Shown here: positions 5,994 through 16,525 of the stretch, in pieces | Layout: each line of letters opens with the position of its first letter | How positions within the stretch are numbered: position 1 is the stretch's first letter | Source of the DNA: a virus | Length of the DNA stretch: 47,113 nt | Virus record (IMG/VR): IMGVR_UViG_3300017989_006424 | Span: 1-47,113 of that record | Direction: 5' to 3' (one strand) | The notes under the pieces: model-generated | What the model was told of the DNA's origin: nothing | The model's input: only the letters and a program-made list of their open reading frames with translations | The model's database searches: none | Position numbers and translations under genes: made by a program

Positions 5994-7631
5994 ATGCCTA
6001 CATTTCAAGAGATCCCGCTCAAAGATATTGTGCTCAGCGGGGACAATCAACGCACCATTCTCGAAGGCGACGACGCCTTTAAGGAACTGAAAGCGAGTAT
6101 CGAAGCCGGTGTTGCCGCGGGCGGTCCGGGCGTGCGCGTTCCGATCATCGTCCGCAAAATCAAAGGCCGAAAGCAACCGGGCAACAATACGAAAGACACC
6201 TACGAGCTGCGCGCGGGTGAACGCCGGTATCGGGCCTGTAAGTCCCTGGGCCTGAAAACCATCCCGGCCGTTGTGCATAATAACCTGGATGACCTGGAAG
6301 CGCTGGACTTAATGTATATCGAAAACAAGTTCCGGGAAAACCTGAAACCGATGGAGGAAGCGGCGGAGGTCGCGTTGCTGATGGAGCGGTTCGGTGGCAG
6401 CGCCAAACGTATCGCCGAGAAGATCGGCAAGGCCGAACAATGGGTGCGCGTGCGCGCCAATATCATCAACGGCCTCATCAAGCCGTGGAAAACAGAGATC
6501 CGTAAAAAGGGTGAGAGCCGGTTTGCCTCCTGGACGATCTCGCACCTGTTACAAATCGCTCGATTGCCGAATCATCATCAAAAGGAGCTGTTGAGATTTT
6601 ATACACAAAGCTGGATTGATCCGGAAAAGGCAACGGCGGCGGACGTGGAAGAGAAGATCGCGCGTCTCATGCAACTACTCTCGAAGGCCATGTGGAATCT
6701 CGATGATGAAACGCTGTGCCCGACCGCCGGGGCGTGCTCACAATGCACGAAGCGAACAGGGCATCAGCCGATGCTGTGGTTCGACAGTGACGATCAGGCC
6801 GAAGCGGGGGATCAGTGCCTCGATCCGGAATGCTGGATGGGTAAGCAGACGGCGTGGCTGGCGCGACGGGCGAAAGAATTGAGGGACAAACACCCCAAGC
6901 TCGTGCTCGTGGCCAAGGGGTATCCGCAAGACCGGGAGGCCGAGGCTATCGGTAAAAACGTCGGGACGTACCTCTGTGAATGGGATTATAAGGTCGTCAA
7001 AAAATCGGCCAAGGGCGCCGTGCCGGCCATGTACGTTTTCGGCAAAGGCGTGGGCCAACTCACCTATATCCAACGCAAATCGAACGCCTCCGAGACGCCG
7101 AAAGCCAAGGGGGTGCCCACGCCTTTGAAAGAGCGACGCGCCAAGCTCAACGCCAAGCGCTGGGCCCAGGTGTTGGTCGATATGAAGGATAGGGTCGAGA
7201 AGAGCACCGCCGGGGATATCACCTACAAAGACAAAGTGACGGGCTTAATGGCGATGGTGGCCTGTTACGGGAATTCGCGGCTATGGTGTGCCCATTCGCA
7301 GGTCAACGCCAAGGACGTTGAAAAGCTCATCAAAGACAAAGATGGGCAGGCGAAAGCCCTCGACATGCTGTGGCAGAGCTTCATCCCCACTCTGAGAGAC
7401 GAGTTGACCTGGAACGGCCCGATTACACAAACCCCGAACAGCTTGACAGAAGATGCGAAGTGGATTGCCAAGCTGATCGGGGTGGATATCCAAGCATTGT
7501 TCAAGGACGTGAGCGAACGCAAAGGTTTCACAGAGCCGAAATCGTGGCAGTCTCTTAACGCCGACGGAACACCGAAGAAAGCGAAACCGAAAAAGACCGA
7601 CCAGCCCAAGCCTATGAAGAAAGCATCGTAA
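5994..7631 (+). CDS. ParB/Srx-domain DNA-binding protein
   Basis: The N-terminal third of this 545-residue protein matches the ParB/sulfiredoxin-like domain: ELRAGERRYRACKSLG with GERR at 75-78, then ENKFRENL at 110-117, followed by a helix-turn-helix-like region (AKRIAEKIGKAEQWVRVR, about 135-155). Cellular ParB is a CTPase that binds and spreads on DNA. The middle has a Cys-rich stretch (CPTAGACSQC, then CLDPEC) that could bind metal. The C-terminus is Lys/Pro-rich. It is roughly twice the usual ParB length and no ParA partner is present, so plasmid-type partition is unlikely; a nuclease, replication or regulatory role is more plausible. AAAGGAG lies ten bases before the start. Confidence 0.75.
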   Translation: MPTFQEIPLKDIVLSGDNQRTILEGDDAFKELKASIEAGVAAGGPGVRVPIIVRKIKGRKQPGNNTKDTYELRAGERRYRACKSLGLKTIPAVVHNNLDDLEALDLMYIENKFRENLKPMEEAAEVALLMERFGGSAKRIAEKIGKAEQWVRVRANIINGLIKPWKTEIRKKGESRFASWTISHLLQIARLPNHHQKELLRFYTQSWIDPEKATAADVEEKIARLMQLLSKAMWNLDDETLCPTAGACSQCTKRTGHQPMLWFDSDDQAEAGDQCLDPECWMGKQTAWLARRAKELRDKHPKLVLVAKGYPQDREAEAIGKNVGTYLCEWDYKVVKKSAKGAVPAMYVFGKGVGQLTYIQRKSNASETPKAKGVPTPLKERRAKLNAKRWAQVLVDMKDRVEKSTAGDITYKDKVTGLMAMVACYGNSRLWCAHSQVNAKDVEKLIKDKDGQAKALDMLWQSFIPTLRDELTWNGPITQTPNSLTEDAKWIAKLIGVDIQALFKDVSERKGFTEPKSWQSLNADGTPKKAKPKKTDQPKPMKKAS

Positions 7632-7633
7632 CG

Positions 7634-8572
7634 ATGGGCACATACCGAGGGAACGTAGATAAGCTCAGAGAGGACATCGACCGCATCGTGGAGCGGCTGA
7701 GGCAGTCCTCTATTCCGATCACGACGCTCTACCGGACGGAGTATCACGTCGGCTATGCGACGTTCAAGCGGGAAATCCTGAAGCGCATCTCTGAGGAAGA
7801 GTACCAGCACATTGCCAAGCAAAGGATGGCACAGCTCAATAACGAGGCCACGCAATTCAAGAAAGGTCATACGCCCTGGAATAAAGACGTCAAGGGCCTC
7901 CGCATGTCGCCCGCGACGGAATTCAAGAAAGGGCATTTGCCTCATAATTATAAAAAGATCGGCGCGATTTACATCGTCAAAGACAAAAAGGGCACGCCGT
8001 ATCGCTGGATCAAGCTCAAGGACACCGGACCGAGAGAACACCGGCGAAAGCCTTACGCTCGGTATGTGTGGGAAGGTGAACACGGCCCGATCCCAAAGGG
8101 CGGGATCATCCGCCATAAGGACGGCGATTCACTCAATGACAACCTCGACAATCTCATGTTGATTGACCGGGCTGAGAATGCCCGAATCACGCGCCGCTCG
8201 CCCAAGGCGGAGGCGAACCGATTGAAGGCTTTACGGAAGGCGGCAAAGAAACGCTGGCGAGCCTATCGTAAGAAAAAAAAGGAACAGGCGGAAGCTCTGG
8301 AATCTCTCAGGCAAAAGAGATTGAAGGCGGTCGCCGAAGAAGTGCGCGACAAGGAATTGCACGAGGAGAATATCATCCAGATCAGAGGGCCGTTGACGGT
8401 TTGGTACGATTGCCCGGGCTGTGGATACAGGGCGAAAGAAGAAGCTCTCCCCTGTCCGAAATGCGGGTCGATTGTCCGATTCGAGCGCATCGAGCACGCG
8501 ATGGAGTATATCGAGAATTGGAATGAAATGAGGGACGGAGCACGTCCGGCAAGGAAGGCTGCATGTTCATGA
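7634..8572 (+). CDS. HNH endonuclease with C-terminal zinc ribbon
   Basis: The 312-residue product looks like a free-standing HNH endonuclease of the homing type. Two FKKGH repeats (residues 75-79, 97-101) resemble the NUMOD-like DNA-binding elements of such enzymes. The core holds RHKDGDSLNDNLDNL (160-174) with His161, Asp163, Asn170 and Asn173, the HNH metal and catalytic pattern. A long basic helix follows, then a zinc ribbon with Cys pairs at 260/263 and 274/277. It starts two bases after the ParB-like stop and overlaps the next start by ten bases, so it is built into the operon and may be a tolerated selfish gene or have a packaging/replication role. Confidence 0.75.
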   Translation: MGTYRGNVDKLREDIDRIVERLRQSSIPITTLYRTEYHVGYATFKREILKRISEEEYQHIAKQRMAQLNNEATQFKKGHTPWNKDVKGLRMSPATEFKKGHLPHNYKKIGAIYIVKDKKGTPYRWIKLKDTGPREHRRKPYARYVWEGEHGPIPKGGIIRHKDGDSLNDNLDNLMLIDRAENARITRRSPKAEANRLKALRKAAKKRWRAYRKKKKEQAEALESLRQKRLKAVAEEVRDKELHEENIIQIRGPLTVWYDCPGCGYRAKEEALPCPKCGSIVRFERIEHAMEYIENWNEMRDGARPARKAACS

Positions 8573-12542: not shown

Positions 12543-12575
12543 CCGACGTGAAGGAAGAACAGGTCAATCATCGTT

Positions 12576-12622
12576 CCCCCGCCTGGGACACCCCTGTAGC
12601 ATCCCGCACAGGCAGGCGGGGG
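12576..12622 (+). terminator. Hairpin terminator candidate before the modification cassette
   Basis: A 10-bp GC-rich stem, CCCCCGCCTG (12576-12585) with CAGGCGGGGG (12613-12622), closes a 27-base loop. The bases after it (ACGTCTTGTTGTC) are only moderately T-rich, so it may be a weak intrinsic terminator. It lies between the lysis-like genes and a promoter-led cassette. Confidence 0.55.
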
Positions 12623-12667
12623 ACGTCTTGTTGTCATAAAATATTATGAAGTATTCAGATTATTTTA

Positions 12668-12696
12668 TTGATACAAGCAAGGAAATAAGGTACACT
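12668..12696 (+). promoter_or_regulatory. Sigma70-type promoter for the DNA-modification cassette
   Basis: TTGATA at 12668-12673 and TACACT at 12691-12696 are separated by exactly 17 bases, in AT-rich DNA. Transcription would be expected to begin about seven bases after the -10 box, at or within a base or two of the ATG at 12703. The mRNA would then be nearly leaderless. The alternative is an upstream promoter with AAGG at 12687-12690 as a distant ribosome binding site. Confidence 0.55.
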
Positions 12697-12702
12697 TAAG
12701 CT

Positions 12703-13104
12703 ATGGCAACGACTCAAAACATTTTTAAAGAGCCGGTGGTGTTCAACATTGGTTATCAAGGCTATGACCTGACGTCATTCATTTCGGCGTTAAAAGCTGC
12801 GGGTATTGATCGTTTAGTGGATCTTCGAGAGAGGCCGGTCAGTCGCAAGAAAGGGTTTTCGAGAAGGCAACTGGAGAGCGCCCTGAAAGCAGAGGGTATC
12901 GCGTATAGCTGGATGGGTCGGCTCCTGGGCGGCTTTTCGATCCCAAAGGAAACCTGGAGGATCGGATGCAAACAGATGGCTGACATGGCTCAGAGCGAAA
13001 CGATCGTCATGATGTGCATGGAAGCGAATGTCAAAGAGTGTCATCGAAGGCAGTTGGCGGATATCCTGGCGATCGAGTATGAGATTCACAACATCAATCT
13101 GTGA
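12703..13104 (+). CDS. DUF488 protein
   Basis: The 133-residue protein fits DUF488: the N-terminal FNIGYQGYDL (14-23), the conserved LVDLRERPVSRKKGFS (38-53), and near the end CMEANVKECHRR (Cys105, Cys113-His-Arg-Arg). DUF488 proteins are widespread, sometimes beside DNA-modification or nucleotide genes, with no firmly established biochemical role; the conserved Cys and His residues suggest an enzyme. Here it heads a three-gene cassette with a predicted adenine-modifying enzyme and a ParB-like protein, with ten bases between this stop and the next start. A promoter lies directly upstream. Confidence 0.8.
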   Translation: MATTQNIFKEPVVFNIGYQGYDLTSFISALKAAGIDRLVDLRERPVSRKKGFSRRQLESALKAEGIAYSWMGRLLGGFSIPKETWRIGCKQMADMAQSETIVMMCMEANVKECHRRQLADILAIEYEIHNINL

Positions 13105-13113
13105 GGCAACGGA

Positions 13114-14439
13114 ATGTTTCGTGGCGTAGTCGGGCACGAGATCAGGGATTGGATCATTAGCAATGCACGCTGTGTAAGCGGCCGGACGGTCTATGTCGGG
13201 TGTAGCGGCGCTTTCACTATCGAGACGGTCTTGTCTCAATTGAACGCTCCCCCTGAGAGAATAATCTCCAGCGACGTGTCACTCTATAGTAGTGCGTTAG
13301 GCTGTTATTATACCGATACGCCTTTTGACCTGACAACGCGGCCGGGCTATGAATGGCTGTCCCCTTTCCTGACGAACACCGCAGAGATCGCCGCGGCGGT
13401 TGTGGTGGTCCAGGAAATGAACCTGTACCGGACGCGCAAGACGTCGTATCACCGGCGAATGTGGGATCATTACCAGAATCATTTCAAAGCGTATCATAGC
13501 GCTGTGCTGGACAAACTCGCCAAGCGCAAATCCCTCCTCACAATTGACGATTATCAAGCCCTCGACGTGAAGGATTTTGTCCATCAATGCCCTGCGGATA
13601 GCGTGTTCCTGTCCTTCATGCCGTTCTATGCAGGCGATTATGCCAGCATGTTTCGCGTGTTGGATGAGGCGTTTGAATGGACGGCCCCTGCGTTCGAGGA
13701 ACTGACGCCGGAACGAAAAGAAGCATTGCTTCGCGGGATCAGCGAAAAGCTCAACTACGTGCATCTAGACGATCAGCGCCGAGCGTTCATGCCGATCCGG
13801 GCCAGTGTGGGGGGCGGTCGAAAGGTCCCTGTGTACCTGTATAGTAATCTGGGCCATGCAGGCTCGGAGGTTTACTATAAGCCGTCCATCAATGCGTGGG
13901 ACGTCCCGCCGTACAAGATTCTCCAAGTCGATCAGGAACTCGGCGCGCCGTATGACCTCAAGATTGTGGCCATCAGCTACCGGCACCTGAGTTACATTCG
14001 CGACAAGAATCTGGCCAAGTCGATCAAGCCGACGAGTCCGAGTTGGGGGTACGGCGTCTTTATAAACGACGTGCTGGTGGGCGTGTTGGGTTGGAATCGA
14101 GGCAAAGACGGTGAAAAATATTACTTGCTCACGGACACCCCGGTTACGTCGAATGTCTATCGCCGAATCAGCAAGCTCATGTGCGCCGTCGCCAAGACCA
14201 AAGCAATGGGGGACATTCTCAGGCAAAGAACAGGGCAGTTCTGGAAAACGTTCACGACGACGGCCCGAACGCAAAAGGCCGTTTCGATGAAGTATCGCGG
14301 TGTGTTTCAAGAGGTCAATCGGGATAAAAAACAAGGCATCATCAACTACGGGTCCAAGTTTAACTGGACGCGAGAAAAGGCCGTCAAGAAATGGATGCAA
14401 TGGGAAAAACAGGCGAAACACTCCAAACAAAAATCGTGA
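13114..14439 (+). CDS. Putative anti-restriction DNA methyltransferase with Mom/GNAT-like C-terminal domain
   Basis: The 441-residue protein resembles the phage family annotated as putative antirestriction adenine methyltransferase. Residues 1-200 look like a class I methyltransferase: motif I YVGCSGAFTIE (27-37), the acidic SSDVSLYSSALG (52-63, Asp54) and a motif-IV-like FMPFY (168-172) where adenine methylases have (D/N)PP(Y/F). Residues ~265-420 look like a GNAT-type acyltransferase related to phage Mu Mom: GVFINDVLVGVLGW (314-327), LLTDTPVTSNVYRRISKLM (338-356) and TTARTQKAVSMKYRG (382-396). The divergent FMPFY leaves open whether methylation occurs. Likely role: modify phage DNA adenine against host restriction. 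Family match is from memory of motifs. Confidence 0.65.
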   Translation: MFRGVVGHEIRDWIISNARCVSGRTVYVGCSGAFTIETVLSQLNAPPERIISSDVSLYSSALGCYYTDTPFDLTTRPGYEWLSPFLTNTAEIAAAVVVVQEMNLYRTRKTSYHRRMWDHYQNHFKAYHSAVLDKLAKRKSLLTIDDYQALDVKDFVHQCPADSVFLSFMPFYAGDYASMFRVLDEAFEWTAPAFEELTPERKEALLRGISEKLNYVHLDDQRRAFMPIRASVGGGRKVPVYLYSNLGHAGSEVYYKPSINAWDVPPYKILQVDQELGAPYDLKIVAISYRHLSYIRDKNLAKSIKPTSPSWGYGVFINDVLVGVLGWNRGKDGEKYYLLTDTPVTSNVYRRISKLMCAVAKTKAMGDILRQRTGQFWKTFTTTARTQKAVSMKYRGVFQEVNRDKKQGIINYGSKFNWTREKAVKKWMQWEKQAKHSKQKS

Positions 14440-15188
14440 GGGTCGATCCCCGCGGATTGACGCTGTTGGAAGAAAACGCTCGGTTCATGCCGGCGGAGCA
14501 ATACCAGCGTTTGGTGTTGAATATCCAGCGGGACGGCTGTTTGAGTAGCACGCCGCTGGTCTATCGAAATAAAGATCAAGTGATTGTGTTGAGCGGCAAT
14601 CATCGAACGATGGCGGCTATCGATGCCGGCCTGGAGGCTATTGACGTCATGGAAATTCTGAGTCCGCTGACGGAAGATCGGATGCGGGCCATCCAGTTAA
14701 GCCATAATGCGTTGAACGGCAAGGACCAACTTAATGTTCTGAAATCGATTTGGAGTAAAATTGATGGTGTTGACGCGAAGGAATACGCGGCGCTGAGCAA
14801 GCAAATGATCGAAGACATGGAACGCATCGACGTGCCGGCCATTGATGCGCGGCTCAATTTCGAGCACATTTCGATCATGTTTTTGGGTGAAGAGAAGGAA
14901 GAAGTGCTGGACGTCCTGCAGAAGGTTCGCAAGTGGAATATCACGGGCAAGGACGTGTGGGTCGAAGCGATTCAGCACTACGACGACATCGCTCGGGCGA
15001 TGGAAGACATCTGTACGCGGGAGACAATCCACAATTTCGCGACGGCCATTCTGTTGATGGCCCGGTACGCGACGGAATATTTGGCATGGGTTGATGCGGG
15101 TGAGGTGACACTGGGACACGCTCAACATCCAGTTGAGAAAGGCGGTTCGATTCCGCATACCCGCTGTTTTGAGGACCGGGAGTTATGA
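14391..15188 (+). CDS. ParB/Srx-like protein of the modification cassette
   Basis: The 265-residue protein carries a ParB/sulfiredoxin-type N-terminal domain: PRGLTLLEENARFMP followed by VIVLSGNHRTMAAIDAG (SGNHR at 68-72, where canonical ParB has GERR). The C-terminal half is helical and unrecognised. Some ParB-like domains act as nucleases, others bind or hydrolyse nucleotides. The gene overlaps the methyltransferase end by 49 bases if it starts at ATG 14391; a GTG at 14436 gives the tidier GTGA overlap and keeps the whole domain, so the true start is uncertain. Its place next to a DNA-modifying enzyme suggests a partner role in target choice or modification. Confidence 0.7.
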   Translation: MDAMGKTGETLQTKIVRVDPRGLTLLEENARFMPAEQYQRLVLNIQRDGCLSSTPLVYRNKDQVIVLSGNHRTMAAIDAGLEAIDVMEILSPLTEDRMRAIQLSHNALNGKDQLNVLKSIWSKIDGVDAKEYAALSKQMIEDMERIDVPAIDARLNFEHISIMFLGEEKEEVLDVLQKVRKWNITGKDVWVEAIQHYDDIARAMEDICTRETIHNFATAILLMARYATEYLAWVDAGEVTLGHAQHPVEKGGSIPHTRCFEDREL

Positions 15189-15958: not shown

Positions 15959-16525
15959 ATGGCTAAACGCGGCAAAAATAAAAGCAACGTGGGACGCAAG
16001 TCCAAATACCAGACGCACATCGAGCCGAATGTCGAGCTGATTCTTGGATGGCTCCGCAGCGGGTACACCGAACAGAGTATTGCCAAACGGTTGGGCGTGG
16101 GAGCCTCAACATGGAAGCACTACAAAGGCCAATATCAAGACTTTCGAGACCTCATACAAAAGGGCCAACAGGATATCGCGGCGCTGTGTGTGAACAGCCT
16201 GCTCAAACGAGCGGTAGGGTACGATTACGAAGAGGTTCATAAGGAAGTCGTCAATCCGGGGTCCCAGGGCCAGGGGCGCTCCGGAGCGCAGCGCGTTGTG
16301 GTTAAGACCATTACGAAACACGTTCCGGCGGACGTCGGGGCCTGTTGTGTCATTCTGTTCAACCGCATGAAGGGTAAGTGGCAGAACAAACAGGAGATCA
16401 AGCATAGTGGCCAGATCAAGAACACCGGCGTGTTGATGGTCGAGCCCGAGCGTACCAGGAAGCAATGGGAAGAGTGGGTACAACAAGGACACAAAACGCA
16501 GCAAGAAAAAGCGACGCCAACATAA
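15959..16525 (+). CDS. Terminase small subunit
   Basis: The 188-residue product has the layout of phage small terminases: a basic N-terminus, a helix-turn-helix (LILGWLRSGYTEQSIAKRLGVGASTWKHY begins at about residue 29), a helical middle (RDLIQKGQQDIAALCVNSLLKRAVGYDYEE) and an acidic/charged tail. The LKRAVGYDYEEV stretch is often seen in this family. It would bind packaging sites and recruit the large subunit, whose gene overlaps its end by 61 bases. The ATG lacks a clear ribosome binding site. Call rests on motif and position, both consistent. Confidence 0.75.
   Translation: MAKRGKNKSNVGRKSKYQTHIEPNVELILGWLRSGYTEQSIAKRLGVGASTWKHYKGQYQDFRDLIQKGQQDIAALCVNSLLKRAVGYDYEEVHKEVVNPGSQGQGRSGAQRVVVKTITKHVPADVGACCVILFNRMKGKWQNKQEIKHSGQIKNTGVLMVEPERTRKQWEEWVQQGHKTQQEKATPT

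What the first reader, a model, noticed from the sequence alone, without database searches (positions are those of the whole stretch)
12703..15188. Three-gene DNA-modification cassette: DUF488 + methyltransferase-Mom/GNAT fusion + ParB-like
A promoter-led cassette combines a DUF488 protein, a protein with a methyltransferase-like half and a Mom/GNAT-like half, and a ParB-like protein overlapping it. The methyltransferase catalytic motif is divergent (FMPFY instead of an adenine-methylase (D/N)PP(Y/F)), so the chemistry may not be simple methylation; a two-step adenine hypermodification by the two halves is possible. DUF488 and the ParB-like domain have no settled roles in such systems. This is the best candidate in the window for an undescribed biochemical system.
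Basis: partly seen in the sequence, partly recalled or inferred. Interest (0 to 1): 0.8.

Follow-up and report, generated by a model that had tools for sequence, protein, structure and literature searches.

The report
Phage three-gene DNA-acylation-like cassette
A phage carries three neighbouring genes (a phosphatase-like enzyme, a DNA-methylase/acetyltransferase fusion and a ParB-like protein) that stay together in many unrelated phages and probably put an as yet unidentified chemical group on phage DNA.

Summary
Three + strand ORFs (12703-13104, 13114-14439, 14391-15188) encode a DUF488 protein, a DAM-like + GNAT fusion and a ParB-like protein, just upstream of the terminase genes. The association is real: in 58 non-redundant loci found with the fusion alone, all carry the ParB-like gene and 43 have DUF488 within 6 kb. 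Searching with phage DUF488-N3 alone finds the fusion in 54 of 80 loci. One relative fuses MT, GNAT and ParB in one ORF. The fusion models well (pLDDT 92); its best solved matches are E. coli Dam and phage Mu Mom. The DUF488 model resembles PTP/dual-specificity phosphatases. The odd FMPFY is a clade-wide trait, not decay: a sister clade keeps NPPTY, and GNAT residues differ with it. Two relatives drop the methylase half but keep GNAT, ParB and DUF488. So the GNAT is probably the working enzyme and the Dam-derived half targets DNA or binds SAM; a two-step methylate-then-acylate route is not supported. That DNA is the substrate is inferred, not shown. The domains already have Pfam families, and DUF488-linked phage systems were, from memory, predicted in 2023. 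It is therefore a new member of a named but uncharacterised kind.

The parts
12703..13104 (+). DUF488 protein, 133 aa, predicted cysteine-dependent rhodanese-phosphatase (PTP/DUSP-like) enzyme
   Evidence: PF04343 E=1.2e-19; AF2 model pLDDT 93 with best PDB matches to dual-specificity phosphatases and RNA 5'-triphosphatases, E=3e-3, prob about 1.00
13015..13047 (+). Predicted DUF488 active-site loop, C105...C113-H114-R115
   Evidence: Invariant in the 15, 17 and 24 aligned cassette DUF488 proteins
13114..14439 (+). DAM-like methylase + GNAT fusion, 441 aa
   Evidence: PF22555 and PF22559, found in all 58 aligned members; model pLDDT 91.9
13117..13854 (+). DAM-like (Rossmann methyltransferase) half, residues 2-247
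   Evidence: PF22555 E=7e-58; Foldseek best PDB hits are E. coli Dam 4rtn/4rtm, E about 1e-4
13195..13224 (+). Motif I (SAM-binding), VGCSGAFTIE, residues 28-37
   Evidence: G32 invariant in 89/89 and C30 in 83/89 sequences; D54 (motif II) invariant 89/89
13615..13629 (+). Motif IV position FMPFY (residues 168-172), aromatic in place of catalytic D/N
   Evidence: F/Y/H in all 56 members of the window's clade; N in 32 of 33 sister-clade members; P170 invariant 89/89
13957..14403 (+). GNAT half, residues 282-430
   Evidence: PF22559 E=2e-27; Foldseek best GNAT-fold hit is phage Mu Mom 8bv8 E=5e-4
14391..15188 (+). ParB-like protein, 265 aa, overlapping the fusion by 49 nt
   Evidence: phrog_7405 E=5e-55; family profile matches ParB structures 7bnr/7bnk E=7e-5
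14592..14606 (+). ParB Box II-like motif SGNHR, residues 68-72
   Evidence: G69 and R72 in 78/78 and H71 in 77/78 aligned sequences that cover the position
12572..12625 (+). GC-rich hairpin, probable terminator of the upstream gene
   Evidence: MFE -37.4 kcal/mol for 12560-12650, z=-3.7; the T-run after it is imperfect and the consensus scan did not list it
12668..12696 (+). Weak sigma-70-like promoter match TTGATA-17-TACACT
   Evidence: 9 of 12 consensus bases; not above chance on its own

Best explanation
This is a phage DNA-modification module centred on acyl transfer. The C-terminal GNAT transfers an acyl group from an acyl-CoA to an amine of a DNA base. Adenine N6 is the likeliest target, by analogy with Mom and because the partner domain descends from an adenine methylase. 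The N-terminal Dam-derived half binds SAM and DNA and presents the base. In the window's clade it no longer has the D/N of the methylation motif, so it probably does not methylate N6. The ParB-like protein is an NTP-binding partner made together with the fusion; it may load or target the complex, as DpdB (ParB-like) partners DpdA. DUF488 is a PTP-like cysteine enzyme that removes or transfers a phosphate (or similar) on a substrate of the pathway: a donor, a nucleotide or a DNA end. The module would act late, before packaging, to protect virion DNA from host nucleases. Shown here: the domains, their conservation, linkage, folds and motif states. Inferred: DNA as substrate, the acyl donor, the order of steps and the protective role.
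For: The ParB-like gene accompanies the fusion in all 58 non-redundant viral loci, usually overlapping it, and one relative encodes MT-GNAT-ParB as a single 691-aa ORF (L354). DUF488 is within 6 kb in 43/58 loci. It sits directly upstream on the same strand in 21 of 49 eligible loci of the window's clade and 22 of 28 of the sister clade, against 1.6 and 1.1 under random placement. Searching with phage DUF488-N3 alone finds the fusion in 54/80 loci, and ten more records carry the GNAT elsewhere on the contig. Foldseek best PDB matches are Dam for the N half and Mom for the C half. Motif I G32 and motif II D54 are invariant in 89/89 while the catalytic position is F/Y/H across the window's clade, so SAM binding seems kept and methyl chemistry changed. 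GNAT, ParB and DUF488 persist without the methylase half in L359 and L344. DUF488 folds like PTP/DUSP phosphatases. ParB-like partners of DNA-modifying enzymes are known: DpdB and DndB (PMC12839542, PMC10853773).
Against: No experiment shows modified DNA in any of these phages. The GNAT half is not significantly similar to Mom by sequence profile, and non-DNA GNATs match nearly as well by fold, so protein, tRNA or small-molecule acylation is open. A sister clade keeps NPPTY, and metK lies near some of its cassettes (9 of 65 loci, related phages), so methylation may still matter there. MT-less versions are rare: two loci.
Confidence: 0.45

Rival explanations
1. Two-step adenine hypermodification: the methylase half first alkylates adenine (methyl, or another SAM-derived group such as aminocarboxypropyl), then the GNAT acylates the product.
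For: Motif I and motif II residues that bind SAM are invariant. A sister clade has an intact NPPTY motif and metK near some cassettes. The two halves are fused in nearly all members and their key residues differ together between clades.
Against: The D/N needed for amine methylation is aromatic in the window's clade. Two relatives lack a methylase half. N6-methylation would make the same nitrogen a poorer acyl acceptor (chemical reasoning).
Confidence: 0.15
2. DNA-end or packaging-linked processing: the set acts on DNA ends or at the packaging site rather than genome-wide, with DUF488 removing end phosphates and ParB marking the site next to the terminase.
For: In the window and many relatives the cassette lies directly upstream of terminase genes (a TerL cluster within 6 kb in 32/58 loci; FP_Brigit and ValentiniPuff). 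DUF488 folds like phosphatases including RNA 5'-triphosphatases. DNA-end processing was, from memory, predicted for this DUF488 clade by Burroughs and Aravind 2023 (paper not held).
Against: In Gordonia phage Clawz and Mycobacterium phage Megabear the cassette is not directly next to the terminase large subunit gene. A GNAT has no obvious role at DNA ends. Position near the terminase may only reflect gene order.
Confidence: 0.15
3. The GNAT acylates a protein or RNA target (host transcription, translation or defence), and the methylase-like and ParB-like parts give DNA or nucleotide binding only.
For: General GNATs such as Naa50 match the model almost as well as Mom. Phage GNATs that acylate host proteins are known (phiKMV Rac, reviewed in PMC7824862). 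The ParB fold can bind NTPs and be fused to acetyltransferases (PMC12704722).
Against: Near-constant fusion to a Dam-derived domain points to a DNA-linked substrate; one variant has an HNH nuclease domain in that place (L344), again DNA-acting.
Confidence: 0.2

Closest known systems
Pfam PF22555 DAM-like-phage1 + PF22559 GNAT-phage-like, with PF04343/PF22751 DUF488-N3a (named, uncharacterised families)
   Same: The window fusion passes both MT and GNAT cut-offs; all 58 aligned relatives match both; the DUF488 neighbour passes PF04343.
   Different: The window's DUF488 is below the PF22751 cut-off (15 vs 27 bits); motif IV is FMPFY, a rare form within the family (FMP only in the window and L010).
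Phage Mu Mom (adenine acyl-type hypermodification)
   Same: GNAT fold; best solved match to the C half (8bv8, E=5e-4).
   Different: No significant sequence-profile similarity; Mu Mom has no fused Dam domain, and no ParB or DUF488 partner is annotated beside it.
E. coli Dam (DNA adenine methyltransferase)
   Same: Rossmann fold; motif I and motif II SAM-binding residues; best solved match to the N half (4rtn, E=8e-5).
   Different: The catalytic DPPY motif is replaced by FMPFY; fused to a GNAT.
DpdA/DpdB (TGT plus ParB-like ATPase inserting 7-deazaguanine in DNA)
   Same: A ParB-like NTP-binding partner encoded beside a DNA-modifying enzyme.
   Different: A different modifying enzyme; a functional analogy only, no sequence test done.
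Rhodanese-phosphatase superfamily, RapZ-C/DUF488/DUF4326 clade (Burroughs and Aravind 2023, from memory)
   Same: Conserved Cys...CHR loop and PTP-like fold; predicted role in phage nucleic-acid modification.
   Different: The paper could not be read here, so whether it lists this exact cassette is unverified.

Membership tests
DAM-like-phage1 / GNAT-phage-like (Pfam) | Both profiles over curated cut-off in one protein | tested here: met
   196.5 and 96.5 bits against cut-offs of 27; 58 of 58 relatives match both
Active DNA adenine methyltransferase (Dam type) | SAM-binding motifs I and II | tested here: met
   G32 and D54 invariant in 89/89 sequences; Dam is the best fold match
Active DNA adenine methyltransferase (Dam type) | Catalytic motif (D/N/S)PP(Y/F/W) | tested here: not met
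   FMPFY at residues 168-172; aromatic across the window's clade
Mom family | GNAT fold with Mom as nearest structure | tested here: met
   8bv8 is the best-scoring GNAT-fold hit, E=5e-4, though other GNATs follow closely
Mom family | Sequence-profile relationship to Mom | tested here: not met
   hhalign probability 1.5%, P=0.034 over 21 columns
Mom family | Acyl-type modification of adenine in virion DNA | not testable with these tools
   Needs nucleoside LC-MS
DUF488 (PF04343) | Profile over cut-off | tested here: met
   71.5 bits against 22.2
DUF488-N3a active subclade (PF22751) | Profile over cut-off | tested here: not met
   15 bits against 27 for the window; 12 of 15 cassette DUF488s match at E up to 0.1
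Rhodanese-phosphatase superfamily | PTP/rhodanese fold with catalytic Cys and Arg loop | tested here: met
   PTP/DUSP folds dominate the top of the Foldseek list, TMq up to 0.61, E from 3e-3; C105 and R115 invariant. Catalysis untested
ParB-CTPase/Srx fold | Box I/II core and conserved Arg | tested here: met
   Family profile hits 7bnr/7bnk E=7e-5; SGNHR with R72 invariant
Canonical ParB (partition) | Neighbouring ParA, HTH domain, parS | not tested
   No HTH or ParA was reported next to it, but no dedicated search was made

The most novel reading that the evidence does not exclude
A widespread phage system makes a DNA base modification not yet described: an acyl group set by a GNAT that a Dam-derived, SAM-binding but no longer methylating domain aims at its base, with a ParB-like NTPase and a PTP-like DUF488 enzyme as obligate partners; two clades of it make two different products.
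Probability: 0.3. Interest if true: 0.85.

Novelty: new member of a known kind. Interest (0 to 1): 0.58.

Why it matters
If the module marks DNA, it is a common uncharacterised phage DNA-modification system: relatives turned up in 211 IMG/VR stretches and 100 bacterial genome stretches from one scan each, in phages or prophages of Actinomycetota, Bacillota, Pseudomonadota, Deltaproteobacteria, Nitrospirota and others. Cultured carriers exist (Gordonia Clawz and Soos, Mycobacterium Megabear, Microbacterium ValentiniPuff, Faecalibacterium FP_Brigit), so the question can be settled by LC-MS on virion DNA. It would also give a role to DUF488 and to a ParB-like family in DNA modification, and explain a methylase fold that keeps its cofactor site but has lost its catalytic residue.

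Tried and rejected
Sequence search of the fusion against PDB: nothing meaningful. Mom by profile-profile comparison: not significant, so a specific Mom relationship is not claimed. phrog_2443 'amidoligase': the profile hit to the GNAT half and the BFVD amidoligase match (E=2e-25, over the whole fusion) suggest an amidoligase-DAM-GNAT fusion somewhere, but the survey of 291 genomes almost only found the amidoligase part on its own, so it is left as a lead. PF22751 as a probe misses most phage DUF488-N3 copies; an own alignment found them in 6 of 14 records. A search for more MT-less GNATs added none beyond the two known. The idea that FMPFY is decay in one phage was rejected: the position is F/Y/H throughout the clade. 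Chance co-location was rejected. The literature tools did not hold the key papers, so prior description is stated from memory.

Full report
What is there. Three + strand ORFs follow each other at 12703-13104, 13114-14439 and 14391-15188. The first is DUF488 (PF04343, E=1.2e-19). The second is a 441-aa fusion of Pfam DAM-like-phage1 (residues 2-247, E=7e-58) and GNAT-phage-like (282-430, E=2e-27). The third overlaps it by 49 nt and belongs to phrog_7405 with ParB-like PHROGs behind it. Small and large terminase genes follow at 15959 and 16465, then portal, head and tail genes; recombination and replication genes lie upstream. A hairpin at 12572-12625 (z=-3.7) probably ends the upstream transcript. 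The promoter match at 12668-12696 is weak.

Is the trio more than chance? One scan of IMG/VR with the fusion found 211 relatives, of which 80 were fetched. After removing redundancy at 85% identity, together with phage relatives from GenBank, 58 loci remain. All 58 carry the ParB-like gene, nearly always overlapping or abutting the fusion. DUF488 proteins, recognised by iterated profiles and the C...CHR loop, lie within about 6 kb in 43 of 58. A second clade (31 non-redundant loci) has DUF488 directly upstream almost throughout. Under random placement 1.6 and 1.1 loci would show DUF488 directly upstream; 21 of 49 and 22 of 28 do. The reverse search, with phage DUF488-N3 alone, finds the fusion within 5 kb in 54 of 80 loci, directly downstream in 46; ten of thirty records that lacked it nearby carry the GNAT elsewhere. 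Microbacterium phage ValentiniPuff has all three genes across its genome ends. In bacterial genomes the pattern repeats: 64 of 80 with ParB and 45 of 80 with DUF488 by strict position filters. The DUF488 profiles were built from these loci, so drift is possible; the invariant C, C, H, R residues argue against it.

What the parts are. The AlphaFold2 model of the fusion has mean pLDDT 91.9 and pTM 0.72. Its best PDB matches are E. coli Dam (8e-5) and phage Mu Mom (5e-4), each for one half; other GNATs follow at 7e-4 to 2e-3. Profile comparison of the GNAT half with Mom is not significant, so the fold is GNAT, with Mom nearest but not exclusively so. The DUF488 model (pLDDT 93.1) matches dual-specificity and PTP phosphatases and RNA 5'-triphosphatases at the top of the list, at E=3e-3 and above with probability near 1. 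That places it in the rhodanese-phosphatase superfamily. The ParB-like family profile matches ParB structures and keeps SGNHR with an invariant Arg; in a recent survey the conserved Arg of Box II was needed for NTP binding by ParB-fold proteins (PMC12704722).

The motif. Across 89 sequences the fusion splits into two deep clades. In one, 32 of 33 have N at the catalytic position (NPPTY). In the other, all 56 have F, Y or H there, the window with its sister L010 having FMP. G32, D54 and P170 are invariant in all 89. GNAT residues D341, K393 and Y394 are fixed in the aromatic clade and different in the other. Motif IV and GNAT residues thus differ together between the clades, which looks like a change of chemistry or of division of labour rather than decay. 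With two clades this is one event and not statistical proof of coupling.

Which half matters. In L359 the order is DUF488-N3, GNAT alone (208 aa), ParB, terminase. In L344 an HNH domain replaces the methylase half. In L354 MT, GNAT and ParB form one 691-aa protein. GNAT, ParB and DUF488 are thus the constant set and the methylase half is usual but replaceable. This favours the GNAT as the chemical centre and a targeting or base-presenting role for the methylase half. Methylation and then acylation of one N6 is chemically awkward and lacks the catalytic residue here. In the NPPTY clade, where metK lies near 9 of 65 cassettes, SAM chemistry may remain.

Mechanism and limits. The best explanation (confidence 0.45) is acyl-type modification of phage DNA by the GNAT, aimed by the Dam-derived half, with ParB as NTP-dependent partner and DUF488 as a phosphate-handling enzyme. 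DNA as substrate is inferred from the Dam relationship, the HNH variant and the ParB precedents DpdB and DndB. Rivals are a true two-step modification, a DNA-end or packaging role, and acylation of protein or RNA.

Known or new. The domains are named in Pfam as phage DAM-like, phage GNAT-like and active DUF488-N3, so their authors had recognised them. From memory, Burroughs and Aravind (NAR Genom Bioinform 2023, lqad029) predicted nucleic-acid-modifying phage systems with DUF488-clade enzymes; that paper is not held, and whether it draws this exact cassette is unchecked. No experimental study turned up in the held library.

Noticed in passing
window 5994-8572: A second, different ParB-like protein (545 aa, phrog_4715/3264) is followed directly by an HNH endonuclease gene.
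   Followed up: no
L344:6097-6879: HNH-GNAT fusion in the cassette position where the methylase half normally sits.
   Followed up: partly
L354:2851-4923: Natural single-ORF fusion of DAM-like, GNAT and ParB-like domains, 691 aa, with DUF488 divergently encoded.
   Followed up: yes
L359:32-745; also L156, L173, L176, L310, L311, L312, L314: A PAPS-reductase-like gene lies near some cassettes.
   Followed up: partly
L123, L124, L125, L127, L131, L145, L158, L170, L172 and L007: A phage methionine adenosyltransferase gene lies near NPPTY-clade cassettes, suggesting SAM demand.
   Followed up: partly
BFVD A0A8S5SJK3: An annotated amidoligase (695 aa) matches the whole fusion model (E=2e-25, TMq 0.75), suggesting an amidoligase-DAM-GNAT fusion.
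   Followed up: partly
L027:7831-9100: A second, DUF488 plus weak ParB-like gene pair lies about 4 kb downstream of the main fusion.
   Followed up: no
L004:5863-7305: In Mycobacterium phage Megabear the annotated fusion gene overlaps a tRNA-Gly gene by 18 bases.
   Followed up: no
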